Virus record (IMG/VR): IMGVR_UViG_3300032046_000031
Coordinates: 1 to 57,107 of that record
DNA length: 57,107 nucleotides
Reading direction: 5' to 3' (one strand)
Source: a virus
Both the position numbers and the translations under genes were made by a program. The notes below the pieces were generated by a model, which did no database searches, had not been told where the DNA came from, and saw only the letters and a list, made by a program, of their open reading frames with translations. Positions 3,002 to 49,414 of the stretch are shown in pieces; position 1 is the stretch's first letter, and every line of letters begins with the position of its first letter.

Positions 3002-4327
3002 TCATCCCCCCTCAAGTTTCTTCTTACTCTCCAACCACCATACATCATCAATCTCTACCCCAACTGCCAACCTGTCTAATTGTTTACAGGCAAGGGTGAA
3101 AGTCCCTCCCCCAAGAAAGGGATCAATCCCTCTCTCCTTCACTTGTGAGCAATTCTCAATCAGTTTCTTAATGATGGTAAGAGGCTTCTCTGTTGGATGA
3201 ACCTTTGTCTGCCCTGAAAGGATTGGATGCTCAAACGTTGAGAGTGCCTGAATGGTAGAAAGGGGACGAGGTGGATACCCCTTACTACAATAAAAGATTG
3301 GCTCATAATTGACAGGATAGGAGATGTGAGGTCTAAGGTTGAGAGCATTGTTCTTGATCCATAGGAGGGGAGTTGGGCATACCCAGAACCCAACTTCTTC
3401 TAACAATGCTCTCACCTCAGTATAACGAGCAATGGCAAAGAAAACATAGCAGTGTGATCCCTGTACCAACACCCTATACACCTCCCTCATAACTGGTTTG
3501 ATTACATTCTCCAATACCTTCTTCTCATCATTAAATTCCATCCCCTGCCTAACCTCCCCTCTGTTTGGGAAGGTCTCCTGCATATCATGAATCCCAATCC
3601 CATAAGGAGGGTCGGTGATGCAGAAGTTGAAACTCTCATCTGGAAACTTTGGCAGTTCAATGAGGGAGTCTCCTTTAATGATCTGAATAGGTTCCTCCCC
3701 ACTTTCCAACCTTGCCTCAGCAAATATCCCTGCAATGTCCCTCATAAACCCCAACTCAAACCCAACCTTCATTGCTCTTATTGCAGCTTCCTTCGTCTCT
3801 TTCTTTCCCAACTCTGGGTCGAGTCTGAGAGCCTTTGCAAGTTGGAGATGCTCTCTGATCGTCCCAAGCCCCTCACCAAGGAGTTCAGCAGTATCCTGTG
3901 TCCTCCATCCTCCAGACTTCTTCCCTGTCCATGTGATGTTACCAATTCGCTCTCTTGTCGTTCCGAATTTTTCTTGATAGAGTTCATGAAGTTGAAGCTC
4001 TCCTTCAACCTTTTCCTGCCAGGTTAAGTCTTCTCTGTGGATGTTCTCATAGATCTCAATAGCAAGTCTCTGCCAAAGATCAAGGTTTTCTTTGAGAATA
4101 TACTCTTTCTCAGTTAATTCTTCTTTACCAATCTCTTTGAGTGCTCGAAGTCGTCTTTCACCAACAAGAAGATATATTCCATCATCTCTCTTTTCAAGAA
4201 TTAATGGTTCAATGAGACCAACCTCTTTAATCGAATTAATCAACTCTTGATGTTTCTTCTCATCAAAGGTCTTTCGTCTGCGATCTGGGTCGATGATGAT
4301 GTCTGAGATCTTAATTTTGTCTGTCAC
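3002..4327 (-). CDS. ParB-domain / DNA methyltransferase fusion, 441 aa
   Basis: Two domains. The first 80 residues form a ParB/sulfiredoxin-like domain with the signature LLVGERRLRA. The C-terminal half is a beta-class DNA methyltransferase: motif IV is DPPYGIG near residue 238 and motif I is DPFLGGGT near residue 401, the order typical of N6-adenine or N4-cytosine enzymes. I choose the GTG at 4327 because AAGGAGGGG lies 7 bases upstream. The ATG further upstream is inside the neighbouring gene. Such fusions are common in phages and probably modify phage DNA against restriction. The target site is unknown. Confidence 0.88.
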   Translation of the reverse strand: MTDKIKISDIIIDPDRRRKTFDEKKHQELINSIKEVGLIEPLILEKRDDGIYLLVGERRLRALKEIGKEELTEKEYILKENLDLWQRLAIEIYENIHREDLTWQEKVEGELQLHELYQEKFGTTRERIGNITWTGKKSGGWRTQDTAELLGEGLGTIREHLQLAKALRLDPELGKKETKEAAIRAMKVGFELGFMRDIAGIFAEARLESGEEPIQIIKGDSLIELPKFPDESFNFCITDPPYGIGIHDMQETFPNRGEVRQGMEFNDEKKVLENVIKPVMREVYRVLVQGSHCYVFFAIARYTEVRALLEEVGFWVCPTPLLWIKNNALNLRPHISYPVNYEPIFYCSKGYPPRPLSTIQALSTFEHPILSGQTKVHPTEKPLTIIKKLIENCSQVKERGIDPFLGGGTFTLACKQLDRLAVGVEIDDVWWLESKKKLEGG

Positions 4328-4649
4328 GCTTGGCCCCTCCTTTAGGTTCAACCTTTGCTGGAGGTGTTTGAGGAGGAGTGGTTTGCTTAAAGAGATCCCA
4401 CTTAGCAATCTCATTGATCATAGTTTGCTGGCAGGCATTAAAGAGGGTTTGTTTTCTTAACTCTTTCTCATTCTTTGGCATGATGAGATTGATGTGGGTG
4501 TCAATGGTTTCTGTAATCATCTGTTTCTGCTTTCCAATAGTAATGCCACCAACGAAGCCAGCAGAGACACCAGAAATAAAAATACAAATAATCCAGATAA
4601 GAAGATGATAACTTAATTCAGTTTTCTTTGGTGTTTGTTCTTCACTCAT
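4311..4649 (-). CDS. Small membrane protein, 112 aa, one transmembrane helix
   Basis: One hydrophobic helix at about residues 17-38 (LLIWIICIFISGVSAGFVGG) follows a polar N-terminus. The remainder is soluble, with two Cys residues and a Pro/Lys-rich tail. Probably anchored in the inner membrane. It overlaps the start of the ParB-methyltransferase gene by 17 bases. No family recognised. Confidence 0.65.
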   Translation of the reverse strand: MSEEQTPKKTELSYHLLIWIICIFISGVSAGFVGGITIGKQKQMITETIDTHINLIMPKNEKELRKQTLFNACQQTMINEIAKWDLFKQTTPPQTPPAKVEPKGGAKRDRQN

Positions 4650-14792: not shown

Positions 14793-15146
14793 TCACCCCC
14801 CTTCCATCATCTGTTTTAATTCTTCTTGTAACTCTATTGGCAAACTCTCCCAAAACTTCTCTTTTTTTGTTTGTTTCTTTCCCTTACCCTTAGATTGTCT
14901 CCTTGTCGAAGGATCTGCCTTCCATCCTCTCACCCCTGCCCCTCTTGTATCTACAAGGATGTGTGCAAATGAGCATTTGGGATACGGCCAGTCCCATCTG
15001 CAGTATTCACATCCCTGTCTTGGATAGTAAGCACATTCATATAATAACTTCTTATCAACTTTGTGACCATGACGTTGAAACTCTTTGATGTAAGGTAAAC
15101 GGGTGGAGATGTGAGGGGGTGGGCCAGAGATGGTATGGTCTTTCAT
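14793..15146 (-). CDS. Cys-containing basic protein, 117 aa
   Basis: N-terminal half contains CAYYPRQGCEYCRW and PKCSF, four Cys that could bind zinc. It is followed by a basic, low-complexity linker (KGKGKKQTKKEK) and a helix ending KQMMEGG. No family recognised. Perhaps binds nucleic acid. Confidence 0.6.
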   Translation of the reverse strand: MKDHTISGPPPHISTRLPYIKEFQRHGHKVDKKLLYECAYYPRQGCEYCRWDWPYPKCSFAHILVDTRGAGVRGWKADPSTRRQSKGKGKKQTKKEKFWESLPIELQEELKQMMEGG

Positions 15147-15155
15147 CTGTGTCTC

Positions 15156-15335
15156 CTAATTTGTAAGAGTTAATGTAACTTCAATTCCAAGCTCCTTTGC
15201 AAGTAAGGGAGCTAACTCTTCCCTATCTTTCTGCGTGAGATTTTTAAGTTCTGCGATAAATTGACCTAACTTTTGATCTGGAAGTAACTCAAAATACTTT
15301 TTATAAGCAACAGCAAAGGATATTTTGTCTGTCAT
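15156..15335 (-). CDS. Hypothetical early protein, 59 aa
   Basis: Starts MTDKISFAVAYKKYFELLPD, helical, ending in a short beta strand. I choose the ATG at 15335 because AGGTGGTGAATAAG precedes it and because the longer frame overlaps the promoter at 15386-15414. First gene of its transcription unit. Function unknown. Confidence 0.65.
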   Translation of the reverse strand: MTDKISFAVAYKKYFELLPDQKLGQFIAELKNLTQKDREELAPLLAKELGIEVTLTLTN

Positions 15336-15385
15336 CTTATTCACCACCTTTCCTAACTGGCTTATTTTTCCATCTTGACACCTTA

Positions 15386-15414
15386 AATATAGCATAAAGA
15401 AAAAGGAATGTCAA
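15386..15414 (-). promoter_or_regulatory. Sigma70-like promoter, leftward
   Basis: On the minus strand TTGACA (15414-15409) and TATATT (15391-15386), 17 bp apart. Position fits a transcript starting about 45 bases before the 59-aa gene. The TTGACA and its T-rich flank closely resemble the promoter at 12357-12386. Confidence 0.8.
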
Positions 15415-15500
15415 GAAAAAAATGCATTGAAAATGCCTATACTTTCAAAGACTTAGAAGATTTCCGAAAATAGTCAAAATTGTCTTAAAAAGGAAACAAT

Positions 15501-15959
15501 TTACTCCGATCCTTCATTTACAATCTCAAATGGATCTTTCTCTGGGATGTAGACTTTACTCTCAGCCTTCTCTTCTGCTCTAAGGAAATCTCCCCACTCT
15601 TCTTTCTTCTTTTCTGGTACGAGTTTTATTGGTGCTTCTTTTTGTGGGGACAAATACCATTGTTTTAAACTTGAATTTGTTGCTCTAAGAAAAGGATCAT
15701 CTTTATCAAAAGGTTTCTTAATAACCTTTTTATCTATCGGTGATTTCATCCATCCAATCTCTATTTCAAATCCTATCATTTGTAAGAGAAGAAAACTTTC
15801 TCTTTGTTGTTTAGATAATCTGCCATTTGCATACTTTGCTTCAATCAATTTAACTCTTCCACCTTTACAGGCAATAAAATCTGGCCAAGCTATCTTAAAC
15901 ACCTGCCATCCCTCTTTTTCATACTGACCTTTGATTAATCTCTCACTTGCTGTTAGCAT
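15501..15959 (-). CDS. VRR-NUC nuclease, 152 aa
   Basis: WPDFIACKGGRVKLIEAKY and GRLSKQQRESFLLLQ give the PD...ExK active site and the following helix of the VRR-NUC branch of PD-(D/E)XK nucleases. Small phage members are thought to resolve branched DNA. The C-terminal 70 residues are basic and unrelated to the family. First gene after the early promoter at 16021-16049, with GAAGGAGGATCAT. Confidence 0.85.
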   Translation of the reverse strand: MLTASERLIKGQYEKEGWQVFKIAWPDFIACKGGRVKLIEAKYANGRLSKQQRESFLLLQMIGFEIEIGWMKSPIDKKVIKKPFDKDDPFLRATNSSLKQWYLSPQKEAPIKLVPEKKKEEWGDFLRAEEKAESKVYIPEKDPFEIVNEGSE

Positions 15960-16020
15960 ATGATCCTCCTTCTTAACTTCTTTGACTTTTAAATTGTGTA
16001 ATATTATTAACTACTTATAC

Positions 16021-16049
16021 CTTATAGCACACTTTCTTATATTTGTCAA
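16021..16049 (-). promoter_or_regulatory. Sigma70-like promoter, leftward early
   Basis: On the minus strand TTGACA (16049-16044) and TATAAG (16026-16021), 17 bp apart. Drives the VRR-NUC gene and probably the early block. The gap 15960-16695 also holds palindrome copy 3, an inverted pyrimidine/purine structure and a rightward promoter, and no convincing gene. Confidence 0.8.
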
Positions 16050-16143
16050 GTGTTTTCTTTCTTAATAATTTCAATGACTTATACGTCGCCTACTTCATAC
16101 TTATCATCTCCCGCCTTCTTCCCTTATCCCCTCCCTACCCTTT

Positions 16144-16160
16144 AGGTCACTTTTCGACCT
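16144..16160 (-). promoter_or_regulatory. Dispersed 17-bp palindrome, copy 3
   Basis: On the plus strand AGGTCACTTTTCGACCT; on the minus strand it is preceded by TGAGTAT. It lies about 95 bp upstream of the leftward promoter at 16021-16049 and next to the origin-like structure. Confidence 0.75.
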
Positions 16161-16167
16161 ATACTCA

Positions 16168-16293
16168 CCCTCTCCTCCTCTGATCCTTCCTTTGATCTTT
16201 CTCTCTTCCTCTTCTTTCTCTTATATATATAAATAATATATATGATAGTAAGAGAGGTAAGAGAAGTAAGAAGAAGAAGGAAGGGAAGAGAAA
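16168..16293. other. Pyrimidine / AT / purine inverted structure, possible replication origin
   Basis: About 50 bases of nearly pure pyrimidine (16168-16220) lead into an AT-only core (16221-16243, TATATAT on both sides), then about 48 bases of nearly pure purine (16246-16293). The two outer tracts are imperfectly complementary (for example TCTTACTAT-like and AGTAAGAGA-like runs), so a long hairpin or unwinding element is possible. It lies exactly where the two gene blocks diverge. Origin function is inferred from position and composition only. Confidence 0.45.
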
Positions 16294-16563
16294 GTAACTA
16301 AAAAGGGAGTGAATTGTAAGTCATTGATATCATTAAAGGAAGTAGATTTCCTTAATATTAAGAAAAAGATGGTAACTTATAACATATTGAAAGTATTAAG
16401 GAAAGTGAAAAGTAAAGAAGTTAACATAACTCATCCCTTCTCTCACCTGATTTCCCCTTGCAATCTTACCTGTTGGAAGAAGAGGGGATGAAAGCTGATA
16501 CAAGGTGACAAAAATTGGCTCAAGTTTGTGAAAAGAAAAACTTATCTCATCCCAAAAAAAGAC

Positions 16564-16592
16564 TTGACAAGCATTTTAGAATGTGATACATT
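16564..16592 (+). promoter_or_regulatory. Sigma70-like promoter, rightward
   Basis: TTGACA (16564-16569) and TACATT (16587-16592), 17 bp apart. Upstream is an A-rich stretch that could act as an UP element. Drives the single gene at 16696-17166, leaving a leader of about 95 bases. Confidence 0.75.
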
Positions 16593-16695
16593 GAAAGCAT
16601 AATTGAATAGCGCAGACATTGAAAATTTCTTGTATGAGAAATGAAACATTCAAAGTCTGGCCAAAACACAAATTCTAAAATGAAAGGAAAGGAAA

Positions 16696-17166
16696 ATGGA
16701 AAAAGCAAAAACCGGAGTTAAAATTGAATTGGAAGATGGTAAGGCTATTGACATCAGCCACCTAACCCTTGACTTTCTTGCTAAGGGACTTCCAAAATTC
16801 AAATTGGATGGAAAGGAAAAAGAAGGCAAGTTTACAAGTCTAAGTCTTAAACGAGGACTTATCAAAGACACTCCCACAGAGTACGTCGAGCGGAGAGTGT
16901 TTAAAAATGCGGACACAGATGTCGTAGTCTATGACTTGCCTCTTCCTTTAACTATTGCACAAGCAACAGCCATGTATGGCGAGTCTGACGTGCTTGATGC
17001 AATATGGACAGCCAAACGGATCAAGACCGACGCAAGCAAGGCAGGGAAAGGGCAAGCCGATCCCATAGTCTCCCTTGTCCGCAAGGCACAAAAGGGAGAG
17101 ACATTAACCGTACCAGAAAAGCAACTGCTTGCAAAGTGGTACGCTGGGATGACAAAAGTGAAGTAA
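16696..17166 (+). CDS. Hypothetical protein in its own transcription unit, 156 aa
   Basis: Unrecognised. Starts MEKAKTGVKIELEDGKAIDI, with a basic middle and a helical C-terminal half. Codon use differs from the neighbours (for example more GAC and AAG). AAAGGAAAGGAAA precedes the ATG. It has its own promoter (16564-16592) and its own terminator (17191-17224), unlike all other genes here, so it is probably strongly or separately expressed. It could be a regulator or an abundant protein; I cannot tell. Confidence 0.75.
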   Translation: MEKAKTGVKIELEDGKAIDISHLTLDFLAKGLPKFKLDGKEKEGKFTSLSLKRGLIKDTPTEYVERRVFKNADTDVVVYDLPLPLTIAQATAMYGESDVLDAIWTAKRIKTDASKAGKGQADPIVSLVRKAQKGETLTVPEKQLLAKWYAGMTKVK

Positions 17167-17190
17167 ACAAGAAGTTTAATATATTAAACT

Positions 17191-17224
17191 GGGAAGCAAT
17201 TAACATTCTTGCTTCCCTTTTTTT
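17191..17224 (+). terminator. Intrinsic terminator
   Basis: GGGAAGCAA and TTGCTTCCC form a perfect 9-bp stem with a 9-base loop, followed at once by a run of seven T. It ends the transcript of the 156-aa gene and separates it from the terminase operon. The gap 17167-17535 contains this and the next promoter only. Confidence 0.92.
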
Positions 17225-17476
17225 ATTCCCATTCTCCTCTGTTGTATCTTTCAAACATCCTATCTGCTACTTGCACTCCCAAACATACCTCTATAGTACC
17301 AAGGTGGCAAGTTTAGGGGCGAAAAAACAGAAACAGACCTCATCCATAAATTTTTTGGCCTATGACCTGTGATGTAAGAATGGCTAACCTTAGCTATTTT
17401 GTGATAGAAAGTGATAAGGTTTACACTCTTTCTTCGCCTCCCCCCTTCCCTATCCCCTTCTTTCTAAAAATAACAC

Positions 17477-17504
17477 TTGACAAGTGCCTTTATTATGTTA
17501 TAGT
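17477..17504 (+). promoter_or_regulatory. Sigma70-like promoter of the late block
   Basis: TTGACA (17477-17482) and TATAGT (17499-17504), 16 bp apart. It lies about 30 bases before the small terminase gene and would drive the late operon. Confidence 0.75.
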
Positions 17505-17535: not shown

Positions 17536-18177
17536 ATGCCTTCAAACGAACTGCAAAAGTTGACTCCGAGACATAGAGAGATGATGCTTAGGTTGCTGAG
17601 AGGAGAGAAGGATAAGACGATCTATGAGGATATGGGAATCTCTCAAAATCGCTTCTCTATCATCAAGCACTCCCCCCTCTTTCAGATTGAATTGAATAAG
17701 ATGATGGCAAAGAGAGAGGAGAAGCTTTACAGTATTCAAGATAACTTTCTCGATGCGGCTGAGTTAGGAGTGAAGTTTCAGAAGGAGGTGTTAGAGTCAC
17801 AGCCAGGGACTCATACAATTGAGCAGAAGCTGAAAGCTGCAACAACAATGACGGTGCTTGCATCTCGCCTCCTTCGACCAGGACAGCCATCAAATGGGAA
17901 TGGTGATTTAAATGAAAGTGGGCTGAGCTACGAAGAGAGATTGAAAAGAGTGACGATTGAGGAAAGTATTAGGACTGTGACTCACCCTCAACCTCAGGAG
18001 ATTGATCCTATTGAGATTGATACCTTACTCGCAGGAGACTATCCTCCTTCCTCTGAGTTAGAATTAGGGAATGAAGAAGATATCCTTTTTGGAGAGAGTG
18101 AAGTGGAAGATGACATCTTCAACCCACCTGTTAAAATTGAAGAAACTCTCGCTCGAGCAGGAGGAGAGAAAACTTGA
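17536..18177 (+). CDS. terS: Small terminase subunit, 213 aa
   Basis: N-terminal helix-turn-helix-like segment (LTPRHREMMLRLLRGEKDKT then MGISQNRFSIIKHSP), a central helical region and an acidic C-terminal tail: the layout of small terminase subunits, which recognise the packaging site and bring the large subunit. Position directly before the large terminase supports it. Similarity is by layout rather than by strong motif. The stop overlaps the next start. Confidence 0.75.
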   Translation: MPSNELQKLTPRHREMMLRLLRGEKDKTIYEDMGISQNRFSIIKHSPLFQIELNKMMAKREEKLYSIQDNFLDAAELGVKFQKEVLESQPGTHTIEQKLKAATTMTVLASRLLRPGQPSNGNGDLNESGLSYEERLKRVTIEESIRTVTHPQPQEIDPIEIDTLLAGDYPPSSELELGNEEDILFGESEVEDDIFNPPVKIEETLARAGGEKT

Positions 18178-19982
18178 TCGACATCACCAGATTGAAATAT
18201 TTTGATTATTATGCCCCCAACCTACTCAAGATCAAAACTGAGAGAAGGCAGGTCGTCCCTTTCATCTTCAACCCAATCCAACAAAAATTACATAAGGTCT
18301 GGGAGTGGCAACTCCGTACTACAGGGATGGTTAGGATTGACATCCTTAAAGCAAGACGAGAAGGGCTTTCAACTTATGTTGAGGGAAGACTTTTTCATCA
18401 AACAGTTACAATTCCCAATACAGGAGCTTTCATCATCACCCATGATAAACCTTCCCTCTCTAAAATTTTTGACATGAGTAAATTATTCTGGAAAGAACTT
18501 CCTCCTGCCTTTCGCCCGATGAAAAAATATTCAAATAAGACAGAATTAGTTTTCGAGAATCCAAATGAAAAAGCTGGTTTTATTAATCCAGGATTACGAT
18601 CAGCAATTGAAGTATTCTCAGCAAATACTGTTACAGCCTCTCGAAGTGGTGGTTATGCAATTGGACACAATTCTGAAGTTGCATTTTGGGAAAATGCTGA
18701 GATCCTTATTACTTCAACAGTCCCTTCCATTCAAGACCTCCCTGGCACCATTATTGTAAATGAAACGACAGGAAATGGTCGATCTGGTTACTTCTATGAA
18801 CACTGGCAGAAAGCAAAACTCTCCCTTAAATCTCAAAGAAAACTCTCTAAATTTTATCCCATCTTCTTTTCCTGGTTGGAATTTCCTGATTATTTAACTC
18901 CTTTCCAAAATGTTAATGATAGGCTAACCTTCATCGCTACGATGGATGAGGAAGAGAAATACATCCAACAAAAATTCAAAGCAACTCTTGAACAGTTAAA
19001 CTGGAGAAGAGGAAAGATCCTTGATTTTTGTTCAATTGTTGAAACAGATGCTACTGAGAAGTTTCACCAAGAGTACCCTTGTGATGATGAGGAAGCATTC
19101 ATCGCTAAGGGGACTCCTTATTTCTCGAAGAAGAAGCTTTTAGAGCTTAGAAATAGATGTAGTGAACCAAAGGAAAGAGGAGACATTTCTGGGGTAGGGT
19201 TTGTGGAGAATGAAGATGGTCCCCTTTCTATCTGGGAACGTCCAGTAAAGGAGTTTGAATATGTGATTCCAGCAGATGTTGGGGAAGGGTTAGAGGGAGG
19301 AGACCCTTCAACAATTCAAGTCCTTAAAGTCCCAAAAACCAACCCTCTTATTGAACAAGTTGCTGAATGGAAAGGGTGGATCGACCCTGTCCAATTTGGT
19401 GGTAAGTTGGTTGAAATGGCGAAATGGTATAATGATGCAATGATCGTCCCAGAAACAAACAATCATGGTTTTACCACCCTGAATGAGATCAAACAGATTT
19501 ATTGGAACATTTACAGATGGCAATATTTTGACAGATACAAACATTATGAGACTGAAAAGTTAGGATGGCAAACCAGCATTGCAACCAAGCCCCTTTTATG
19601 TAGTTATACAGCCTCATGTCTCAATGCAGACATCCTTATCATTCACTCTCAATCTCTCATCGATGAGATGCTTTCCTTTGTCAGAAACCTTACAAACAGT
19701 GGTGAAGCAGATTACAACTGTCATGATGACCTGGTGATGGCTTATATGATTGGGGTGTTTACACTGGCACACACCCATCAATCAGGAAGTCTCCTTCAGC
19801 AACTGGGAAAGTTTCAAGAGGAACAGATTCAAGAACTTTCCAGTCAGGAGAATATTGATAAGGTGATTGAGAGGATGAAAAGGAATGATCCAACTAAGAG
19901 GGATATGGATTTAATAAGTGGAAGGGTGTTTGATGATGATGGAATGGTCGAGAGTGGAGATAGAAGTTGGTTGAATTATTAA
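18174..19982 (+). CDS. terL: Large terminase subunit, 602 aa (TTG start)
   Basis: ATPase domain first: KARREGLSTY serves as the Walker A (a known non-canonical form in terminases) and EVAFWENAE lies at Walker B. The C-terminal RuvC-like nuclease has PADVGEGLEGGDPST and HDDLVMAYMIG, with the expected Asp residues. Length is typical. The TTG at 18174 follows GAGGAGAGAAAAC and overlaps the terS stop; this is the only start with a good site. The protein packages DNA into proheads. Confidence 0.92.
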   Translation: MIDITRLKYFDYYAPNLLKIKTERRQVVPFIFNPIQQKLHKVWEWQLRTTGMVRIDILKARREGLSTYVEGRLFHQTVTIPNTGAFIITHDKPSLSKIFDMSKLFWKELPPAFRPMKKYSNKTELVFENPNEKAGFINPGLRSAIEVFSANTVTASRSGGYAIGHNSEVAFWENAEILITSTVPSIQDLPGTIIVNETTGNGRSGYFYEHWQKAKLSLKSQRKLSKFYPIFFSWLEFPDYLTPFQNVNDRLTFIATMDEEEKYIQQKFKATLEQLNWRRGKILDFCSIVETDATEKFHQEYPCDDEEAFIAKGTPYFSKKKLLELRNRCSEPKERGDISGVGFVENEDGPLSIWERPVKEFEYVIPADVGEGLEGGDPSTIQVLKVPKTNPLIEQVAEWKGWIDPVQFGGKLVEMAKWYNDAMIVPETNNHGFTTLNEIKQIYWNIYRWQYFDRYKHYETEKLGWQTSIATKPLLCSYTASCLNADILIIHSQSLIDEMLSFVRNLTNSGEADYNCHDDLVMAYMIGVFTLAHTHQSGSLLQQLGKFQEEQIQELSSQENIDKVIERMKRNDPTKRDMDLISGRVFDDDGMVESGDRSWLNY

Positions 19983-20587: not shown

Positions 20588-20925
20588 TGACTTTTCTCTT
20601 ATTCCTTTCTCTTTATTCAGCTATCCTTTCCACCATCTTATTCATTCGATGGATGAGATTGCTGATTATAAGAGGAAAGATTAGGAAACAACTTAGAATT
20701 CCTGATCTTCTTCCTCAAAATCCAAATCTTACTCATAATACTCTTCTTACCCCATTTGGGCAAGCAATCAAGGATATTGAAGAGGAGTTAGATGGTGAGG
20801 TGGTGAGGGGATTTGAGATTGAGATGGAGAGAGAGGAAGGAGAAGGGATTGAAGAAACTGTTGAGGAAAGAGAATGGCAGGAAGAAGAAAAGATCCGACA
20901 GCAGAGGAAGGGAAGAGGTAAGTAA
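20584..20925 (+). CDS. Small membrane protein, 113 aa
   Basis: N-terminal hydrophobic helix (TFLLFLSLYSAILSTILFI), a basic turn, then a very acidic C-terminal half with Glu/Arg repeats. Starts at overlapping ATGATG codons within the stop of the previous gene. Function unknown. Confidence 0.6.
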   Translation: MMTFLLFLSLYSAILSTILFIRWMRLLIIRGKIRKQLRIPDLLPQNPNLTHNTLLTPFGQAIKDIEEELDGEVVRGFEIEMEREEGEGIEETVEEREWQEEEKIRQQRKGRGK

Positions 20926-23756
20926 TGGCTCTATCTGAACAAGAGACTAAACTCAGTCGCTACCTTGACTCTCTCTATGTAGAAGGAGCAGCAAGCAGAG
21001 CTGTTGCCAGTAAGAACTGGGAGAATGCAATCAAGGTGATCAAAGGAGAGACCTGGCCAAGTAAGAGACCAAAGTATAAGATCAGTGCTGTTATGAACTT
21101 CCTTGGACAGATTGTAGAAAGGAAAGCAGCTCTCCTTACAGATAGCAGACCAACCATCTCTGTCACTTCTCGTAAGGCTAAGGATGACCCCATCTGTGAC
21201 CTTCTTCAAAAGACGATTGGAGGTATCCTTGAGGAGAAGAACTTTGAGCAAAAGATCACCGAGTTTGTCATGCTTGAGGAATACTTTGGGTTCGCCCTTT
21301 TTAATACTTGCTTTGATCAGAACCTTGATTATGGAAAAGGGGATATTGATTTGGTGGTGATCGATCCTCGTTGCTTCATCTTCGATCCCTTTGTCACGAG
21401 AAGCTGGAACCTTCAGCACGGAGAATATTGTTGTTTAGAGACGGTAAGGCCGACAGAGCTTCTCTGTGAAACTTACAAAGAGAGAAGGGATGATATCAAA
21501 GCAGACATCTCAACAGGCACAACAAAACCCGACTCTCTTGTGCATAAGCTTAGACAACTCTTCCAATTTGATAAGGATTCTCCCAATCAGAAAACTTCTG
21601 TAATCCCACGCTCAATCGTAAGGGATTGGTGGGTGAGAGATCGTACTACAAAGAAGGGTGAAGGATTAGCCTTCCCAAATTGGAGACATATCCTCATCGC
21701 TGGCGGTGTTCCTGTTGCTGATGGAGTCAACCCTTATCTCGATGGCAACCTCCCCTTCGATGGAATGGAATGGGGATTTAATGTTGATTCAGCATATGGA
21801 ACAAATGAGATTGATCAGCTTGAAAATCCTCAGGTTATGTTCAACAAGGTGCTGGCTTCGATCCTTGAGAATGCCATCCTGATGAGTAATGGGATTTGGA
21901 TTGGAGATAGGGATGCTCTTACAGAAGAAGGTTGGAGGAAGCTGAGTAATGAACCTGGAAGTCATGTAAGGGTGAGACCAGGTAAGCAGTTGAGAAGAGA
22001 TGCTCCTCCTTCACTTCCTACTTACATCATGTCAGCTGCAGAGATGATGATCAATGGATTGGAGAAACTCTCAGGAATTACGGAGGTGACAGAGGGGAGA
22101 CGACCTGGGCAGGTTTGTGTTGATCCGCAGACGGAATGTCTGACAAAGAGAGGCTGGAAAAAGTATAATGAACTTTTAGAAAAAGATGAAATCTATTGCT
22201 TTGATCAAAGAACAGAAGTTGGAATGTGGTCTCCTTTGATTGGCCTGGCTATTTATGACTGGGATGATGAGATGTATTCTGTTAAAACGGACAGGATGGA
22301 TTGCCTTGTCACTCCTAATCATGGATGGTGTGTTGGAAATACTTCTGTTCCAGGGTATGTCCGTGTGGAGATGAAAGATATTCATACAGGTCATTTTATT
22401 CCAAATAAAGTAAGGTTAGTAGATGATGCTGTCCTTCCAAAACTCCATGATGCCTTTGTTGAGTTAGTTGGGTGGATTGTTACAGAAGGTTGTTTCAATA
22501 TTGGAATAAGAAAAGAAAATGGAAAGTTAAGATATCGAGTTATTATTTCACAATCGAGAAAGAGCAATGAGGATAATTGTAAACGTATTTATAGGTGTTT
22601 AAAACAGGCGCCATTTAATTTTTCTATGTATGAGGATAAGCGAGGGAGTGGTGTTATTGACTTTACTATCCACGGTGAACCTGCAAGGTTATTGATGGAA
22701 TGGCTTCCTGAAAAAAAATTAACTTATAATCTCATCAATCTCCTCTCAGTCTCTCAACTTGAACTTCTCTATGATACTATGTTGAGAGGTGATGGTTCTC
22801 GGTTTGATCCAACCAATGTAAAGTCTCAGGATATTTATTTTTCTTCGGATGTGGAATTAAGTAATCAGTTTCAGATGATAGCTACATTACTTGGTAAGGC
22901 TACAAATCAGAGAGAAGGAAAGGCTGATCTACGAGTGGAATCTCATAAGAAATCTTACTATGGCATTATTAATAAAGTAAGTTGTCGAAGAGAAGATCAA
23001 AATAAATGGCGGACTCTTTTAAAACACCGAGAGATACAACACTATCAAGGAAAGGTTTGGTGCCCTCAAACCTTAACTGGGACATGGATTGCAAGAAGAA
23101 ATGGTATCACCTACCTCACTGGAAATACCTCAGGTGTTGCCATTGAGAGCCTTGCGATCATGGCCCAGACCACTATTAGGTTGAAAGCAAGACAGATTGA
23201 ATCCCTCATTCAAAGGATTGGTCAGAAACTCATTCCTCGCATCTTTGCTTATTATACTGAAAATAGAATATTCAATCTGGTTGGGGAAAAGGGAGGATTT
23301 CAACAATATATTTTTGATAGAGAGGTAATTAGGCAGGCAGTTAAAGCTGATAGTCGAGGATTGGGAATATTTCAAGATTATCAGTTTAGGGTTGTCCCTG
23401 CCTCCTCCCTTGCAATGACCAAATGGCAGAAAGGGTTGATTGCAACTCAGCTATTCCAGATGGGAGCGATTGATCAAGAAGCCCTTCTCGAGGCAATTGA
23501 ATTTCAACAGAGAGAGGAGATTATGGAGAGGATGGAATCTAAGAGCCAGATGATCCCAATGGAGGCAATTGTAGCAGCCCTTCAGGGTGACCCAAACAGT
23601 CAAAATGTCATGCAGCGAATTGCTCAGGTGATGCAGAAGCTTCAAGGGAAGGGAAAGCAAGGTGGTGGTAAGGGAGCACCAGCAAAGCTTCCTTCAAACT
23701 TACTCAGAGGGGTTCACAGGGAAACTGGGCTCCAAGAACCTCAGATTGGGAAATAG
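20925..23756 (+). CDS. Portal protein with an in-frame intein, 943-aa precursor
   Basis: The host protein (residues 1-397 plus 735-943, 606 aa after splicing) is a portal: long, with a body of mixed strands and the typical segment EGRRPGQV joined after splicing to TSGVAIESLAIMAQT. It forms the ring through which DNA enters and leaves the head. The Gln/Gly-rich C-terminus is usual. Start overlaps the previous stop. The intein (residues 398-734) breaks it in a conserved region. Confidence 0.88.
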   Translation: MALSEQETKLSRYLDSLYVEGAASRAVASKNWENAIKVIKGETWPSKRPKYKISAVMNFLGQIVERKAALLTDSRPTISVTSRKAKDDPICDLLQKTIGGILEEKNFEQKITEFVMLEEYFGFALFNTCFDQNLDYGKGDIDLVVIDPRCFIFDPFVTRSWNLQHGEYCCLETVRPTELLCETYKERRDDIKADISTGTTKPDSLVHKLRQLFQFDKDSPNQKTSVIPRSIVRDWWVRDRTTKKGEGLAFPNWRHILIAGGVPVADGVNPYLDGNLPFDGMEWGFNVDSAYGTNEIDQLENPQVMFNKVLASILENAILMSNGIWIGDRDALTEEGWRKLSNEPGSHVRVRPGKQLRRDAPPSLPTYIMSAAEMMINGLEKLSGITEVTEGRRPGQVCVDPQTECLTKRGWKKYNELLEKDEIYCFDQRTEVGMWSPLIGLAIYDWDDEMYSVKTDRMDCLVTPNHGWCVGNTSVPGYVRVEMKDIHTGHFIPNKVRLVDDAVLPKLHDAFVELVGWIVTEGCFNIGIRKENGKLRYRVIISQSRKSNEDNCKRIYRCLKQAPFNFSMYEDKRGSGVIDFTIHGEPARLLMEWLPEKKLTYNLINLLSVSQLELLYDTMLRGDGSRFDPTNVKSQDIYFSSDVELSNQFQMIATLLGKATNQREGKADLRVESHKKSYYGIINKVSCRREDQNKWRTLLKHREIQHYQGKVWCPQTLTGTWIARRNGITYLTGNTSGVAIESLAIMAQTTIRLKARQIESLIQRIGQKLIPRIFAYYTENRIFNLVGEKGGFQQYIFDREVIRQAVKADSRGLGIFQDYQFRVVPASSLAMTKWQKGLIATQLFQMGAIDQEALLEAIEFQQREEIMERMESKSQMIPMEAIVAALQGDPNSQNVMQRIAQVMQKLQGKGKQGGGKGAPAKLPSNLLRGVHRETGLQEPQIGK
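22116..23126 (+). mobile_element. Intein with LAGLIDADG homing endonuclease, 337 aa
   Basis: Starts at Cys398 (CVDPQTECLTKRGWK) and ends GITYLTGN before Thr735. The first residue (Cys), the last (Asn) and the +1 Thr allow protein splicing. The penultimate Gly, instead of His, is a known variant in phage inteins that end TGN. Two endonuclease motifs are visible, LVGWIVTEGCF near residue 512 and LYDTMLRGDGS near 616. The domain order (splicing, nuclease, splicing) is intact, so both functions may be active. Confidence 0.92.
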
Positions 23757-25571: not shown

Positions 25572-27891
25572 ATGGCTTTAACTTATGATGATTTGGATGC
25601 TGCTGTTAAGAAAAAGTATCTTCCAAAGGCTATTGAGCAGATCTTTATAGGTAATGCTATCTTGACAAAACTCTTAGCCAAGAGTCAAGTTGTCTTTGAT
25701 AGTGGATCAAAGATTGCTCAGCCTGTCATTTATGGAAAGCTGGCAAGCGGTTCTTACTCAGGAATGGATACTTTTGATATTGGTTACAAGAAGATTGCAA
25801 CCTTGGCTGAGTGGAATTGGAAGAACCATCAACTCTTAAATTAGAGGATAGTGGCATGATTGATCTTGACTATGCTTATATTGCTGGATTTTTTGATGGA
25901 GAAGGAAGTATCTTGATTGCTAAGAGTGATCGATCTAAATTCAGACCAAATCCATCTCCTCTGTGGAGTTTAAGGATCACCATTTCAAATCAGCATCTTC
26001 CTGTACTTCAGTTGATGCATCAAGAGTTTGGTGGTGGTATGTATTCACAGACATCTGGAAAGAGTGGTGTTTATAGATTGATCCTTCAGAACAATCAAGC
26101 TGAGAATTTTCTCCGAAAAATTCAGTCTTACGTTAAGGTTAAAAATGATCAAGTAGAGTTGGCTCTTGCTTTTCAGGATCTCCGAAAGGGACGATCCTCA
26201 CGAGTTCGATTAAGTGAAGATGAGAAGACTCTATATGATTCAATCATGTTTGTGATGAGAAACCTTAATCATAAACTCAGTCAAGACTTTCTTGAAAAAC
26301 TGGGTGAATTCAGGGAAGGTCCGACTCATACCGTAAGGATGAAGGATAACCCTGAGCCAAGCTCCTTGAATGGTAAATATGTAGAGGAGAAGGTGCAGAG
26401 ACTAACGCTTGAGGAACCTACCAATAACAGCGACACGAGTGCCCAGCCCGTAAGGGATGAGATAGTCCGACCTTCATAGTAATATGAAGATGCTTTGGAT
26501 AAAGAGCCAAAGCGGTAACAAAGTGTATGTCAATGTCACCATCGCTGGTGACGATCTTGCTAAAACAGAAGGTGATGAGAAGATCATTGGTCTCCTTCAG
26601 GTTAGGATGGAAAATGCTACCCTCACCGCACATGATGACTTCGTGACCATGTTTGTTGGTGATGGGACAGGGAACTCATCTAAGGACTTCGATGGTGCTC
26701 TTAATGGATCTGATGATGGTACCATCTACGATTCCTATGGTGGAATCTCCAGAGCGAGTAATGTCTGGTGGAAGGGTTATGTGAACTCAACAGGTGGAGC
26801 AGCCACCCTTGACCTTATCAACCAAACCATCGGATCGACTACGATTGCTCAGAAGAAATGTGATCTTGCTTTCACCACACAGTCAATCTATGATAAGCTC
26901 TGGGCAAGGGTCCAACCTCAACAGAGATTTCTTGATAGTAAGAGCAAGCTTGCTGAGGTTGGTTTTACAGGGATTAATTTTAATGGTCATATGGAGATCA
27001 TCGTTGATAACCATATCCCTTCAGGTTACATGCTCGGTTTCAATACTGATTACTGGAAGTTGGTTCTCAATAGGAAGAGAAATTTCTATTGGACTGCGGA
27101 GAAGAACCCTGTTGATGCTGATGCCTTAATGAATTAGGGCCATGATGAGGAAACTTATCAATGAATAACACTGCTATATGCGAGGAACTCCTTAAACCTT
27201 CAGATACCCAGAATGGTAAAAATTCTGAAGCTGGGACAATTCGCAGGGAAGATATCCAATTAGAGTTAGATCTTGCTTGGCTTGCAGGTTTAATTGATGG
27301 AGAAGGTTGCTTAACTACTCATTTTTGGAATGATAAGAAAGCTCCTACCAGACCTAAAACTCTTATTTGCTCTTTGGTTGTTTCAAACTCAAATAAATTG
27401 GCTTTGGAAAAAGCACAGCAAATTTACGAATCTATTGGTGTAAAAAGCCATCTTATTATGGGTAAGAGAGAGAACAGAAAGTTCTGGGTTGGTAGTTTAT
27501 CTATCCGAGGGAATTATAATTTATCAACAATTATTCCTCGGTTGCTTCCTTATTTGGTAATAAAGAAGGATCAAGCAATCTCTCTATTGGCGATTGTGTA
27601 TAGAAAAGTAACACTTGGAGAAAAGACGAATGGTAAAAGAGGCTTATCTCTTACCTATGATGAATTTATTCTAACACAAATAAAAAAGCTGCATGAACTA
27701 AAGCAAGAAGGAAGATATGATATCCCCTCAACGACTATACGCAGTGCCCTTTTAGATGTGGAAGGTGATGATATAGTCTGCTCTGCATAGTAATATGCAG
27801 TTAACAAAAGGATGTCAGACAGATGTTAACGATGGGAAATCTCATTTGCATCCAACCAAGAACCAGTTTTATCCTTTCAGGGTTAACATAA
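25572..27891 (+). CDS. Major capsid protein, in three exons split by two group I introns
   Basis: Exon 1 is 25572-25829, exon 2 is 26526-27126, and exon 3 starts at about 27812 (or 27815) and ends at 27891, for about 312 aa. The junction WNWKNH|YVNVTIAGDDL restores a continuous capsid-like sequence (compare EWNWK then YVNVTIAGDDL in this phage capsid family). Exon 3 encodes MGNLICIQPRTSFILSGLT, like known capsid C-termini. Unspliced RNA would give a 90-residue fragment. Site AAGGAGGAAATAAA. Confidence 0.85.
25830..26525 (+). mobile_element. Group I intron 1 in the capsid gene, 696 nt
   Basis: Boundaries come from the rule that a U precedes and a G ends the intron and from pairing: exon CCAU pairs with the internal guide GUGG (U-G wobble at the splice site) and exon 2 UAU pairs with AUA just before the guide (P10). 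The 3' core strand AGATAGTCC (P7) is followed by hairpins CTTCAT/ATGAAG and GCTTTGG/CCAAAGC. It carries a LAGLIDADG endonuclease gene. Boundaries are well supported. Confidence 0.88.
25856..26479 (+). CDS. Intron-encoded LAGLIDADG homing endonuclease 1, 207 aa
   Basis: Start MIDLDYAYIAGFFDGEGSIL, a typical single LAGLIDADG motif with catalytic Asp/Glu. The protein would act as a homodimer to cut intronless capsid alleles and drive intron spread. Its reading frame covers most of the intron and its 3' end overlaps the P7 region. The ATG at 25856 is chosen because it is inside the intron; the frame is open a little upstream into exon 1. Confidence 0.88.
   Translation: MIDLDYAYIAGFFDGEGSILIAKSDRSKFRPNPSPLWSLRITISNQHLPVLQLMHQEFGGGMYSQTSGKSGVYRLILQNNQAENFLRKIQSYVKVKNDQVELALAFQDLRKGRSSRVRLSEDEKTLYDSIMFVMRNLNHKLSQDFLEKLGEFREGPTHTVRMKDNPEPSSLNGKYVEEKVQRLTLEEPTNNSDTSAQPVRDEIVRPS
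27127..27811 (+). mobile_element. Group I intron 2 in the capsid gene, about 685 nt
   Basis: Exon 2 ends GCCU, which pairs with GGGC in a strong P1 hairpin (GCCTTAAT with ATTAGGGC, with the U-G wobble at the splice site). The P7 strand is GATATAGTCTG and is followed by TCTGCAT/ATGCAG, like intron 1, so the two introns are related. The 5' end is well supported. The 3' end may be 27811 or 27814. Confidence 0.85.
27161..27790 (+). CDS. Intron-encoded LAGLIDADG homing endonuclease 2, 209 aa
   Basis: LDLAWLAGLIDGEGCLTTHF contains the LAGLIDADG motif. Related to, but clearly diverged from, the intron 1 enzyme. Starts MNNTAICEELLKP. The end overlaps the P7 region of intron 2. Single motif, so probably a homodimer. 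Confidence 0.85.
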   Translation: MNNTAICEELLKPSDTQNGKNSEAGTIRREDIQLELDLAWLAGLIDGEGCLTTHFWNDKKAPTRPKTLICSLVVSNSNKLALEKAQQIYESIGVKSHLIMGKRENRKFWVGSLSIRGNYNLSTIIPRLLPYLVIKKDQAISLLAIVYRKVTLGEKTNGKRGLSLTYDEFILTQIKKLHELKQEGRYDIPSTTIRSALLDVEGDDIVCSA

Positions 27892-32073: not shown

Positions 32074-33171
32074 ATGCGTGATCATGGTGGGGGTTGGATA
32101 AGGGTAGGAATTCCTCCAAAGGGAAATCTGTATAAGACAGGACAACTTACTTGTTATACCATTGGAGATGATGGGGACAGACAGACTGGTATTGCTAAGA
32201 GGTATCAGATCAATACTACAGGGCAATATGCAGGCACTGTTAATGTTGATGAACCTGAATATGCCGCTGCGACCATTGCCTTTGCTGCTACAACCCCAGG
32301 GACGATTACTGACACAGCGAATCTCCTGGCGACATTTCTGACTGGAGATACAATAAGAATTCGTGGATCAGGCCTGAATGATGGTATCTATACCATCTCA
32401 ACAGGTGGTGTTGCTGGGACAATCAGGACAACTGAGGCGACTGTGGCTGAGGCTGCTGGTGCATACATCACAATCTGTAAGAGGGCAACCCATTCTAGTA
32501 ATACCGTAATTGATCTCAATTCCAGAAAGAGATTGGAATGGGCCAGATACGTCCAGACTGGCAAGGTCGGGCTTGCCTCAGATGGGAAATTAAATTGGTA
32601 TGATGCAACAAAATGCTATACGTTGCATCCTGCCGCTGCTGATTTGGCGATGGTTGCAGGGAATATACTGAGGATAGAGGGCAGTGATGAATCCTCTCGA
32701 TACTTTGCAGGACAGGTTTTGGTCAATAGTGGATTTGCAAGTGCAGTCAACAATTTACCTGGATTAATGGTCAAATCGGTTAGTTTCACGGGTGGCAACA
32801 CTGACATTGTAGTCGATCCAGGCAAACAGACGCTAATTGCTGAGGTGGCAGGTGGATCGAGAACTATCAAGATCGTCTGCCAATCCATTTGGTCTTATTT
32901 GTCGGGAATAAATGTTGCACTGTTAGGGGGATATGGAGATTGGGGGATTCCCAATGATCTGCAACTTGTAAATCTAAGAGATATGGAGCAACCCACCGCA
33001 GCGCCCGATGCGATAGCATTTCCAGGTTGGCCGACCAGTGATTATTTCTGGTCGTCTACTACGCAGCCCAATTACCTTGTTGGCGCCATGATGGTGAATT
33101 TCGAGAGGGGCAGCTTGGTCAACGACGCTAAGACTCTTAACCATTTCGTGCCTTTGGTCAGAGGGGGTTGA
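32074..33171 (+). CDS. Adhesin-like protein with DUF1566-type C-terminus, 365 aa
   Basis: Residues about 60-145 form a beta domain with Thr/Ala-rich strands. The last 100 residues (YGDWGIPNDLQLVNLRDME, then DYFWSSTT and FERGSLVNDAKTL) match the DUF1566 fold, a C-type-lectin-like domain of phage receptor or ligand proteins, including targets of diversity-generating retroelements. The last 200 bases are richer in GC than the flanks, as if imported. No reverse transcriptase or template repeat is visible. Function: probably surface binding. Confidence 0.65.
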   Translation: MRDHGGGWIRVGIPPKGNLYKTGQLTCYTIGDDGDRQTGIAKRYQINTTGQYAGTVNVDEPEYAAATIAFAATTPGTITDTANLLATFLTGDTIRIRGSGLNDGIYTISTGGVAGTIRTTEATVAEAAGAYITICKRATHSSNTVIDLNSRKRLEWARYVQTGKVGLASDGKLNWYDATKCYTLHPAAADLAMVAGNILRIEGSDESSRYFAGQVLVNSGFASAVNNLPGLMVKSVSFTGGNTDIVVDPGKQTLIAEVAGGSRTIKIVCQSIWSYLSGINVALLGGYGDWGIPNDLQLVNLRDMEQPTAAPDAIAFPGWPTSDYFWSSTTQPNYLVGAMMVNFERGSLVNDAKTLNHFVPLVRGG

Positions 33172-33174
33172 GAA

Positions 33175-33588
33175 ATGGGACTTCTTGATTTAACTCAAAA
33201 TCAGTTAGTGAAGGCAACCAAAGTCCAAATCCTGACCAAAATTAATGACAAACTCTCTGCTATGACCGAGAGAAGGCTAAAGGAGTTTGTCTGGCACATC
33301 CGAGACCTGATCGTTGAGGATTTGAACTATCAGGAAGAGGTTCAGGTTGAGAGTAAGGATTGTAAGAATGGGCAGATATTAAGGGTGAGAGAAATAAGGG
33401 ATTTGATGGGGAATAAGGTTGGTTCTGAGAGGATAGAGTGGGAATACTACCCTAAAGAAATCTTTCCTGATGAAAGAATAAGGTTTATAAGAACTCGTCA
33501 TTTTGATAAGAATGACATTGAAGTTATTGGACAGGGAAGAGAAATTGAACATCTTTCAGATGGAAAAATAACTTCAAAACTAATTTAA
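33175..33588 (+). CDS. Hypothetical protein, 137 aa
   Basis: Starts MGLLDLTQNQLVKATKVQIL, helical then beta, with many charged residues. Overlaps the upstream gene's end closely. Function unknown; virion-related by position only. Confidence 0.6.
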   Translation: MGLLDLTQNQLVKATKVQILTKINDKLSAMTERRLKEFVWHIRDLIVEDLNYQEEVQVESKDCKNGQILRVREIRDLMGNKVGSERIEWEYYPKEIFPDERIRFIRTRHFDKNDIEVIGQGREIEHLSDGKITSKLI

Positions 33589-47800: not shown

Positions 47801-48690
47801 TCTACCCTGCTGACTCCCATCTTGAACTCCTTCTCTGTCCTCCAACCTTTCTCTCAACGGAGATCATCAACAACCGTTGGATGAAGAAGATGTCTCCAGA
47901 GGAGAGGCAGGTCAACCGTGATAAAGCTGTCTCTCAATTTCACCTTATGTATAGCTTATTCAGTCAGGATGCTATGGTTTATCTCCTCCCACCAAAGAAT
48001 GGTTTGCAAGACCAAGTTTACATCACAAATGCAGGGATGTGTCTCCCGCATCTTGAAAAGACTGTCATCCTTGCAAATTTCAAAGCTGAAGGACGACCTG
48101 GGGAGGAAGATGAGTTAGCTTGGTTTATCTCAAAGATGGGATATGCAACCTTCAAGCCTCCTTTCTTCTTTGAAGGAGAGGCAGAGTTAAAGTGGGTGAG
48201 GGACAACATCTACATTGGAGGGTATGGGATTAGGACACATCTCAAAGCTTTAGAATGGATCGAAGCTAACTTTGGTGCAAGAATTATCAAGATTGAAGAG
48301 ACCGACCCCCTCACCTACCATCTTGACTGTAACATCTTCCCCCTTTCTAATACAAAGATCATCTTTAATGAAAATCTGGTGAAAGATCCACAGTTAAGGG
48401 AGATGGAACAGATTGCTGAGCTTATCCCTGTGACTAAGAAGCAGGCTCAATTCTCCATTACAAATAATCTGAGAGTTGGCTCCATTGTGTATTCAGCTAC
48501 AGGGATCAAAGAGATGAAACTATCTGATGAGGAATACCCATTTGAGAAGGATAAGGATGAGAAATTAGAACAGATTTGTAGAGCTGCTGGGTTGGAGTTG
48601 ATCTTTATCAACCTATCAGAGATGTATAAATCTGGTGCAGCTTTAAGCTGTTGTATATTTCACCTTAACTATACGAACTTTTTTGATTGA
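47797..48690 (+). CDS. Guanidine-modifying enzyme, amidinotransferase/DDAH-like, 297 aa
   Basis: Residue groups typical of the superfamily are all visible: NAGMCLPHLE near the start, EGEAE followed by KWVRDNIYIGGYG, LTYHLDCNIFPL with the His, and GAALSCCIFHLN with the catalytic Cys near the end. Enzymes of this kind act on arginine, methylarginine or transfer amidino groups. Start overlaps the previous stop as ATGA. First of three coupled enzyme genes. Confidence 0.85.
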   Translation: MIYPADSHLELLLCPPTFLSTEIINNRWMKKMSPEERQVNRDKAVSQFHLMYSLFSQDAMVYLLPPKNGLQDQVYITNAGMCLPHLEKTVILANFKAEGRPGEEDELAWFISKMGYATFKPPFFFEGEAELKWVRDNIYIGGYGIRTHLKALEWIEANFGARIIKIEETDPLTYHLDCNIFPLSNTKIIFNENLVKDPQLREMEQIAELIPVTKKQAQFSITNNLRVGSIVYSATGIKEMKLSDEEYPFEKDKDEKLEQICRAAGLELIFINLSEMYKSGAALSCCIFHLNYTNFFD

Positions 48691-48691
48691 T

Positions 48692-49414
48692 ATGCTACCT
48701 TTACAAGACTTTCTCCAACAATCTGAAACACAGCAAATTAAGAGAGAGCTCCCTCTCAAACTCTACGAGGTTGATTTCAATCGTGATCCCAACCGATCAA
48801 TCTACCATGACCAGTCTACCTTCCTCTCCCCTGCAGATGGTGTAATCGTCTATGCTAAGGTTGTTCACCCTAAAGAGAACATGATCGAAGTTAAAGGGAT
48901 GAATTATACTATTGAAACCCTCATGCAAGAGACCATGAAGTACCCATGTTTGATCATTGGCATCTTCATGACCGCTCTTGACGTTCACATCAATCGCATC
49001 CCTACTAATGGCTTCATCAAACACACAAAACTCCCTCCTTTAAAGGTAGCTAACCTCTCAATGAGGGAGGTTGAAAAGGATATCCTAAAGAGGCTCAATC
49101 TTGATTATTCGCACATGGAGTATATGCTCTTCAATGAGAGAGTTAAGAATCGTATCTATGCCCCCAATCTCAAACAACCTTATTACATCTTACAAATCGC
49201 TGACTTCGAGGTGGATGTCATCGCTCACTTTGGAGACTCTGATGATTATTACACACAGGGAGAAAGGTTTAGTGTGGTCAGGATGGGAAGTCAGGTTGAC
49301 CTTATTATCCCCTTTATCAACCCTAAACTGCAATTTGAATCTCTCCTTAATAACTGCCTTCTCTATCATGTTGAAGCAGGAAAGGATAGGTTGGTAAGAA
49401 TAAATGGAATTTGA
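48692..49414 (+). CDS. Phosphatidylserine-decarboxylase-like protein, 240 aa
   Basis: FLSPADGVIVYAKVV, then VKGMNYTIETL, FMTALDVHINRIPTNG with the His, and GERFSVVRMGSQVDL are in the order of PSD family proenzymes. The GS of MGSQ stands where the family cuts itself to form the pyruvoyl group. Whether the substrate is a phospholipid or another amino acid compound is unknown. Lies between two guanidine-modifying enzymes. Starts two bases after the previous stop. Confidence 0.8.
   Translation: MLPLQDFLQQSETQQIKRELPLKLYEVDFNRDPNRSIYHDQSTFLSPADGVIVYAKVVHPKENMIEVKGMNYTIETLMQETMKYPCLIIGIFMTALDVHINRIPTNGFIKHTKLPPLKVANLSMREVEKDILKRLNLDYSHMEYMLFNERVKNRIYAPNLKQPYYILQIADFEVDVIAHFGDSDDYYTQGERFSVVRMGSQVDLIIPFINPKLQFESLLNNCLLYHVEAGKDRLVRINGI

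What the first reader, a model, noticed from the sequence alone, without database searches (positions are those of the whole stretch)
16564..17224. One gene isolated between its own promoter and a strong terminator
The 156-aa gene is the only one with a complete transcription unit of its own, at the divergence point, and its codon use differs from that of its neighbours. Such genes in phages are often regulators, anti-defence proteins or lysogeny-related.
Basis: partly seen in the sequence, partly recalled or inferred. Interest (0 to 1): 0.55.

Follow-up and report, generated by a model that had tools for sequence, protein, structure and literature searches.

The report
Swappable phage gene with fixed promoter
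A small phage gene of unknown family sits alone between its own start and stop signals, and in a nearly identical sister phage those start signals are kept while the gene itself has been exchanged for a very different version, a pattern that suggests a protein involved in the contest with the host, though its function is untested.

Summary
ORF 16696-17166 is a monocistronic unit: extended -10 promoter, leader hairpin, ORF, 3' hairpin, and the only strong intrinsic terminator that a custom scan found in 57 kb. Codon use is 2nd most atypical of 83 ORFs and shifted in all seven alleles. (2) A sister phage, about 99% identical over 28 kb, keeps promoter, leader and start codon but has a 37%-identical ORF and another terminator; the neighbouring small unit shows the same ORF-for-ORF exchange. 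(3) The protein is mosaic: conserved core, exchanged middle, unrelated tails. (4) The unit flanks a large imperfect palindrome with repeated 20-mers, origin-like. Best reading: a strongly expressed, host-directed (takeover or counter-defence) protein, diversified by promoter-anchored ORF exchange. The exchange is shown by sequence; expression and function are inferred. No fold or family match. Lysogeny is not supported. Main rival: a protein of the adjacent origin-like module.

The parts
16564..16592 (+). promoter of the gene, TTGACA-17-TACATT, extended -10
   Evidence: a TTGACA promoter recurs in L002, L004, L005, L006, L042 and L044 (read from the sequence)
16610..16661 (+). leader hairpin: 13-pair stem, 25-nt loop, about 10 nt after the expected transcript start
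   Evidence: 61 of 65 cells paired in 5 sequences, 9 of 13 positions with two or more pair types; stem chosen by eye. Folding z about -2 each; RNAalifold on the MAFFT alignment predicted no pairs
16684..16692 (+). purine-rich ribosome-binding site AAGGAAAGG
   Evidence: sequence
16696..17166 (+). gene X, 156 aa, basic (pI 9.4), orphan family
   Evidence: no hit at E<=10 in PHROGs or Pfam; homologs in L002, L004, L005, L006, L042, L044
17173..17190 (+). 3' hairpin AGTTTAATATATTAAACT between stop codon and terminator
   Evidence: a hairpin in front of the terminator also in L003, L005, L006
17191..17224 (+). intrinsic terminator; stem-loop and T tract identical to that of L005
16058..16403 (.). 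large imperfect palindrome around the AT core TATATATATAAATAATATATAT, between divergent promoters; origin-like
   Evidence: window z -5.3; L002 -8.9; L005 -11.7; L006 -4.0 against 30-nt block shuffles, 0 of 100 shuffles as good in each of 4
16062..16081 (+). 20-mer repeat TTAATAATTTCAATGACTTA, copy 1; further copies at 16317-16336 (-, 2 mismatches) and 16380-16399 (-, 4 mismatches)
   Evidence: exact in L042, 1 to 5 mismatches in L002, L004, L005, L006; none in L044
16021..16049 (-). divergent leftward promoter TTGACA-17-TATAAG in front of the VRR-NUC-like gene
   Evidence: read; counterparts in L002 and L005 read
15501..15959 (-). VRR-NUC-like gene, also an exchanged allele (39 of 141 columns identical to L002)
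   Evidence: (Pfam VRR_NUC E 0.0016, below the curated cut-off)
15156..15335 (-). small ORF of the neighbouring leftward unit, replaced in the sister phage by an unrelated ORF of like size while promoter (15414-15386), leader and ATG are kept
17477..17504 (+). separate promoter of the terminase operon, TTGACA-16-TATAGT

Best explanation
Gene X is an insulated, strongly expressed phage gene whose product acts on the host or its defences (takeover or counter-defence). Mechanism proposed: host RNA polymerase reads a strong fixed promoter soon after DNA entry; the short mRNA carries hairpins at both ends, which should slow its decay, and a terminator keeps its transcription apart from the terminase operon, which has its own promoter. 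The ORF is diversified by recombination that keeps promoter, leader and start codon and brings in a different ORF with its terminator. The conserved core (residues 46-86, LxLKRGxxKDxxxEYxERRxF) would be the scaffold, and the exchanged middle and tail the part that meets variable targets. Shown by sequence: the unit, its conservation, the ORF exchange, the mosaic protein. Inferred: strong and early expression, mRNA stability, host-directed function.
For: Sister phage G001 (L002 contig): of 142 windows of 200 nt shared over 28.4 kb, the 131 outside 15000-17260 average 99.3% identity; inside that hot spot 10 of 11 windows are below 95% and the one above (98.5%) holds the gene's promoter and leader. 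Only 3 mismatches in the 200 nt before the ATG, 13 identical nt from the ATG on, next exact 40-mer at 17262, beyond the terminator. The neighbouring unit repeats the pattern: promoter, leader and ATGACA kept, ORF unrelated, identity back at the next gene's ribosome-binding site. Gene tree conflict: X of the window is 59-61% identical to L005/L006 but 37% to L002, whose TerL and TerS are 100% identical to the window's; residues 87-126 are 72-78% identical to L005/L006 against 21-23% to L002/L004. Leader hairpin covariation. Codon shift in 7 of 7 alleles. The other variable locus, 32508-33508, lies in and beside a gene with a head-protein PHROG match and an Lcl_C domain, plausibly a surface gene that contacts hosts; that gene ranks 1 and X ranks 2 of 83 in codon atypicality. 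Conserved regulatory sequence in front of poorly conserved early genes is the signature used to find anti-defence genes in archaeal viruses (PMC11065993, abstract and one section read).
Against: No functional homolog, fold or family. No expression data. The gene is present in every relative covering the site, which fits a core function as well as an accessory one. Only one pair of near-identical phages was available, so the exchange rests on one comparison (two units). The same hot spot also exchanges the palindrome and the VRR-NUC-like gene, so selection may act on those.
Confidence: 0.48

Rival explanations
1. X belongs to the phage's replicon: it binds the adjacent palindrome or its 20-mer repeats (initiator, origin-binding or accessory factor), and is exchanged because replicon modules are exchanged between competing elements.
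For: Directly beside a palindrome with conserved repeats at the GC-skew minimum; palindrome, VRR-NUC-like gene and X all differ between the sister phages; six of seven alleles have pI 8.9 or more. Precedent: PLE repA DNA-binding domain and origin covary (PMC8263062, passages).
Against: The promoter-leader island between palindrome and X is retained, so the palindrome and X were replaced separately. Side-hairpin motifs of the palindrome group window with L002 and L005 with L006 (read), while X groups window with L005/L006. No DNA-binding family found.
Confidence: 0.2
2. X is an abundant structural or packaging-associated protein (head component or small-terminase partner), hence its place before the terminase genes and its strong unit.
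For: Fixed position immediately upstream of the small terminase gene in 7 of 7 relatives covering the site; strong unit.
Against: Its own terminator separates it from the terminase operon, which has its own promoter; the terminase genes beside it are 100% identical in the sister phage while X is 37%, unexpected for an obligate partner; no structural PHROG match.
Confidence: 0.15
3. Ordinary fast-evolving ORFan in a recombination-prone intergenic region near an origin; the exchange reflects recombination rate, not selection.
For: Palindromes and origins are recombination-prone (general knowledge); a nuclease-like gene lies next to it, and nuclease genes occupy boundaries of exchange between phages (PMC10448857, abstract and outline).
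Against: The replaced stretches keep start codons and promoters in 2 of 2 units, the family core stays conserved, and codon shift and RNA hairpins persist across alleles.
Confidence: 0.12
4. Lysogeny or immunity regulator.
For: Position at a divergent intergenic region.
Against: No integrase, serine recombinase or HTH_3 match in the 57-kb record, which carries a 127-bp terminal repeat.
Confidence: 0.03

Closest known systems
PeSL cassettes (promoter early stem-loop) of T4-type phages, Arbiol 2010 and Comeau 2014 (papers not held; known here from passages in PMC4503421 and PMC3950731 and from recall)
   Same: conserved early-type promoter on one side and a stem-loop terminator on the other of exchanged small ORFs
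   Different: one unit on each flank of a palindromic intergenic region rather than many dispersed cassettes; the exchanged ORFs of gene X are homologous alleles; PolA-type polymerase, so not T4-type by that marker
Early anti-defence genes under a shared regulatory sequence in archaeal viruses (PMC11065993, abstract and section 6 read)
   Same: regulatory sequence conserved while the gene behind it is not
   Different: bacterial-type promoter, one allelic family, no tested function
PLE replicon modules of Vibrio cholerae satellites (PMC8263062, passages read)
   Same: origin region exchanged together with nearby genes in otherwise near-identical elements
   Different: X and the origin-like region do not group the relatives in the same way; X has no recognised DNA-binding domain
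T7 Ocr, gene 0.3 (recalled, no call)
   Same: small early protein made in quantity from a strong promoter
   Different: X is basic, Ocr is an acidic DNA mimic; no sequence relation tested

Membership tests
PeSL-type regulatory cassette | promoter directly upstream of the exchanged ORF, conserved across the exchange | tested here: met
   3 mismatches in 200 nt before the ATG against a 37%-identical ORF
PeSL-type regulatory cassette | stem-loop terminator bounding the ORF | tested here: met
   window and six relatives folded; that of L002 seen in the alignment only
PeSL-type regulatory cassette | composite stem-loop plus promoter element repeated at many places in the genome (feature recalled and from PMC4503421 passage) | tested here: not met
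   one strong terminator in 57 kb
anti-defence protein | inhibits a bacterial defence system | not testable with these tools
   needs expression and plaque assays
anti-defence protein | expressed immediately after infection | not testable with these tools
   no transcriptome; the promoter sequence only suggests host RNA polymerase
replication initiator or origin-binding protein | recognised DNA-binding or initiator domain | tested here: inconclusive
   no PHROG, Pfam or NCBIfam match and no fold match, but models have mean pLDDT 58 and 63
replication initiator or origin-binding protein | allele groups covary with origin type | tested here: inconclusive
   whole X groups window with L005/L006, palindrome motifs group it with L002; motifs judged by eye in 4 sequences
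lysogeny regulator | temperate phage (integrase, repressor) | tested here: not met
   0 of 1 each

The most novel reading that the evidence does not exclude
A phage 'switch locus': around an origin-like giant palindrome, divergent fixed promoters drive exchangeable host-conflict genes, among them a new family of modular effectors (fixed core, exchangeable middle and tail) made from an mRNA protected by conserved hairpins at both ends, so that near-identical phages differ by which effector, nuclease and origin variant they carry.
Probability: 0.22. Interest if true: 0.72.

Novelty: new variant of a known kind. Interest (0 to 1): 0.5.

Why it matters
If right, promoter-anchored ORF exchange between near-identical phages would be a way to pick out host-conflict genes without any homology, using retained promoter and changed ORF as the mark, and it would give a new effector family with natural variants ready for defence-panel tests. 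The palindromic region beside it would also be a candidate origin, of a type seen here only in this phage group.

Tried and rejected
Homology: PHROGs, Pfam, NCBIfam, PADLOC, PDB sequences, INPHARED phages (three weak hits at E 4-6 only; none for the L005 allele), plasmids (one weak partial hit), GTDB genomes (27 pattern matches, none a relative) gave no relative outside this phage group. Structure: two AF2 jobs (mean pLDDT 58.1 and 63.1); Foldseek found nothing at E <= 0.001 and VIA-align's best Z was 5.6 over 47 residues of the helical C-terminus, not interpretable.

The AT core of the palindrome as a probe (19 stretches): 2 are contigs already in hand (those of L005 and L002); none of the 17 others encodes a relative of a window protein at E <= 1e-6; some fold better than block shuffles, but those are AT-rich or repetitive by eye. 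Rejected as a marker.

Nearest annotated phages by TerL that I opened (MW202692, MK613349; 28-30% identity) show no recognisable counterpart in their annotations; they were not compared protein by protein.

I first took 15157-17250 to be the only variable region; a window-by-window check showed a second, milder one at 32508-33508. RNAalifold on the MAFFT leader alignment gave no structure; the covariation claim rests on a stem placed by eye and its slid controls (13-31 of 65 cells). Covariation of X with the palindrome type was looked for and not found. Rfam gave only sub-threshold matches.

Full report
Genome and gene. The window is a 57,107-bp virus record with a 127-bp terminal direct repeat. 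It reads as a tailed phage: TerL 18174-19982, portal 20925-23756, major head protein 26484-27137, primase 51550-52857, PolA-type polymerase 53512-55881. The finding's gene, called X here, is 16696-17166, 156 aa, the first rightward gene after the divergent intergenic region.

X has a TTGACA-17-TACATT promoter with an extended -10 and a strong intrinsic terminator at 17191-17224 (z -4.5). A custom scan of both strands found no other terminator of that quality in the genome. Codon use ranks 2nd most atypical of 83 ORFs (seven likely spurious ORFs were dropped beforehand). The gene that ranks first, 32074-33171, has a head-protein PHROG match and an Lcl_C domain.

Relatives. TerL searches gave eight contigs. 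One, L043, starts inside TerL and cannot inform. All seven others carry X between the divergent region and the small terminase gene: L002, L004, L005, L006, L042 and L044 in full, and L003 by its last 20 codons, read. Promoter and terminator recur. No relative was found in annotated phages, plasmids or GTDB genomes.

Exchange under a fixed promoter. L002's contig is about 99% identical to the window over 28.4 kb. Of 142 windows of 200 nt, 15 fall below 95%: ten starting between 15108 and 17108 and five starting between 32508 and 33308. In the first region two islands remain near-identical, 15330-15515 and 16429-16708. Each holds the promoter, leader and start codon of a unit. For X there are 3 mismatches in the 200 nt before the ATG, 13 identical bases from the ATG on, and the next exact 40-mer begins at 17262, beyond the terminator. 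For the leftward neighbour (start 15335), promoter, leader and ATGACA are the same but for one base in the printed stretch, the ORF is unrelated and of like length, and identity returns at the ribosome-binding site of the next gene. L002 also has a 65-aa CxxC-containing gene after X, and L004 a 45-residue ORF between promoter and X, read.

Gene tree and mosaic. TerL and TerS of the window and L002 are 100% identical, yet X is 36.8% identical; X of the window is 58.9% and 61.0% identical to L005 and L006, whose TerL is 65% and 63%. Within X, residues 87-126 are 72-78% identical to L005/L006 and 21-23% to L002/L004, residues 46-86 are 55-73% identical to the four, and the tail is 20-32% identical to any. 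The terminator stem-loop and T tract of the window are the same as L005's. So an L005-type ORF part with its terminator, or its reverse, has moved between lineages under a resident promoter. Which sister is derived cannot be told.

RNA signals. The leader forms a 13-pair stem with a 23-25-nt loop in window, L002, L005, L006 and L042: 61 of 65 cells pair, 9 of 13 positions show two or more pair types, against 13-31 of 65 with the partner slid by 1 to 3. The stem was placed by eye; RNAalifold did not predict it from the MAFFT alignment; the leader of L004 is of another build and that of L044 has no significant fold (z 0). Terminator regions fold with z -4.4 to -8.5 in the six relatives folded (L003, L004, L005, L006, L042, L044). 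Codon use is shifted from each phage's own terminase genes in 7 of 7 (z -3.9 to -6.9), in six clearly beyond every TerL stretch of equal length and in L004 only just (-3.9 against -3.8); C-ending two-fold codons are 82 of 152 in X against 381 of 1028 in the terminase genes, counting six phages and leaving out L002, whose terminase genes duplicate the window's (Fisher 9e-5). Hairpins at both mRNA ends and codon selection suggest, but do not prove, high expression. T4 gp43, which binds a hairpin in its own leader (PMC3014915, passages), shows an alternative: autoregulation.

The neighbouring palindrome. Between two outward-facing promoters lies an imperfect palindrome of about 350-500 nt around a TATAAATAATATATAT core, in 4 of 4 sequences tested, more stable than 100 block shuffles each (z -5.3, -8.9, -11.7, -4.0), with arms that differ between phages. 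The 20-mer TTAATAATTTCAATGACTTA recurs around it: 0, 2 and 4 mismatches in the window, 0, 1, 4 and 5 in L042 (about 2.4 hits at up to 5 mismatches arise in a shuffled 57 kb). It lies near the GC-skew minimum. An origin is a fair guess, not shown.

Function. No family or fold was recognised. Comparison with known kinds: retained promoter and changed ORF resemble PeSL shuffling in T4-type phages (PMC4503421 and PMC3950731, passages; the original papers were not held) and the conserved regulatory sequences before poorly conserved early genes of archaeal viruses, which led to tested anti-defence genes (PMC11065993, abstract and one section). Together with the only other variable locus being a probable surface gene, this favours a host-directed protein, at about even odds. 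The main rival is a role in the adjacent origin-like module; against it, the island between palindrome and X was retained, so the two were replaced separately. Lysogeny is disfavoured.

Noticed in passing
16058-16403; L002 3520-3975; L005 3690-4185; L006 1-420: Giant imperfect palindrome between divergent promoters, arms differing between phages while pairing is kept; no other such repeat in the window at the search settings used.
   Followed up: partly
17292-17360; also L003, L004, L005, L006: Conserved noncoding block TATAGTACCA ... GAAA..CCTC ... AATTTTTTTGG between X and the small terminase gene; a packaging-site (pac/cos) candidate.
   Followed up: no
32508-33508: Second variable region between the sister phages (69-94% identity), in and beside a gene with a head-protein PHROG match and Lcl_C domain, the most codon-atypical ORF.
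   Followed up: partly
48683-50291: Phosphatidylserine-decarboxylase-like gene next to a peptidyl-arginine-deiminase/agmatine-deiminase-type gene, unusual cargo for a phage.
   Followed up: no
20925-23756: Portal ORF of 943 aa looks interrupted by an intein-like insert (by eye from the translation only).
   Followed up: no
3002-4414: ParB-like N-terminal domain fused to a DNA methylase domain.
   Followed up: no
L004 396-533 and L002 4781-4978: Different small extra ORFs inside the X transcription unit of two relatives (45 aa before X; 65 aa with CxxC pairs after X).
   Followed up: no
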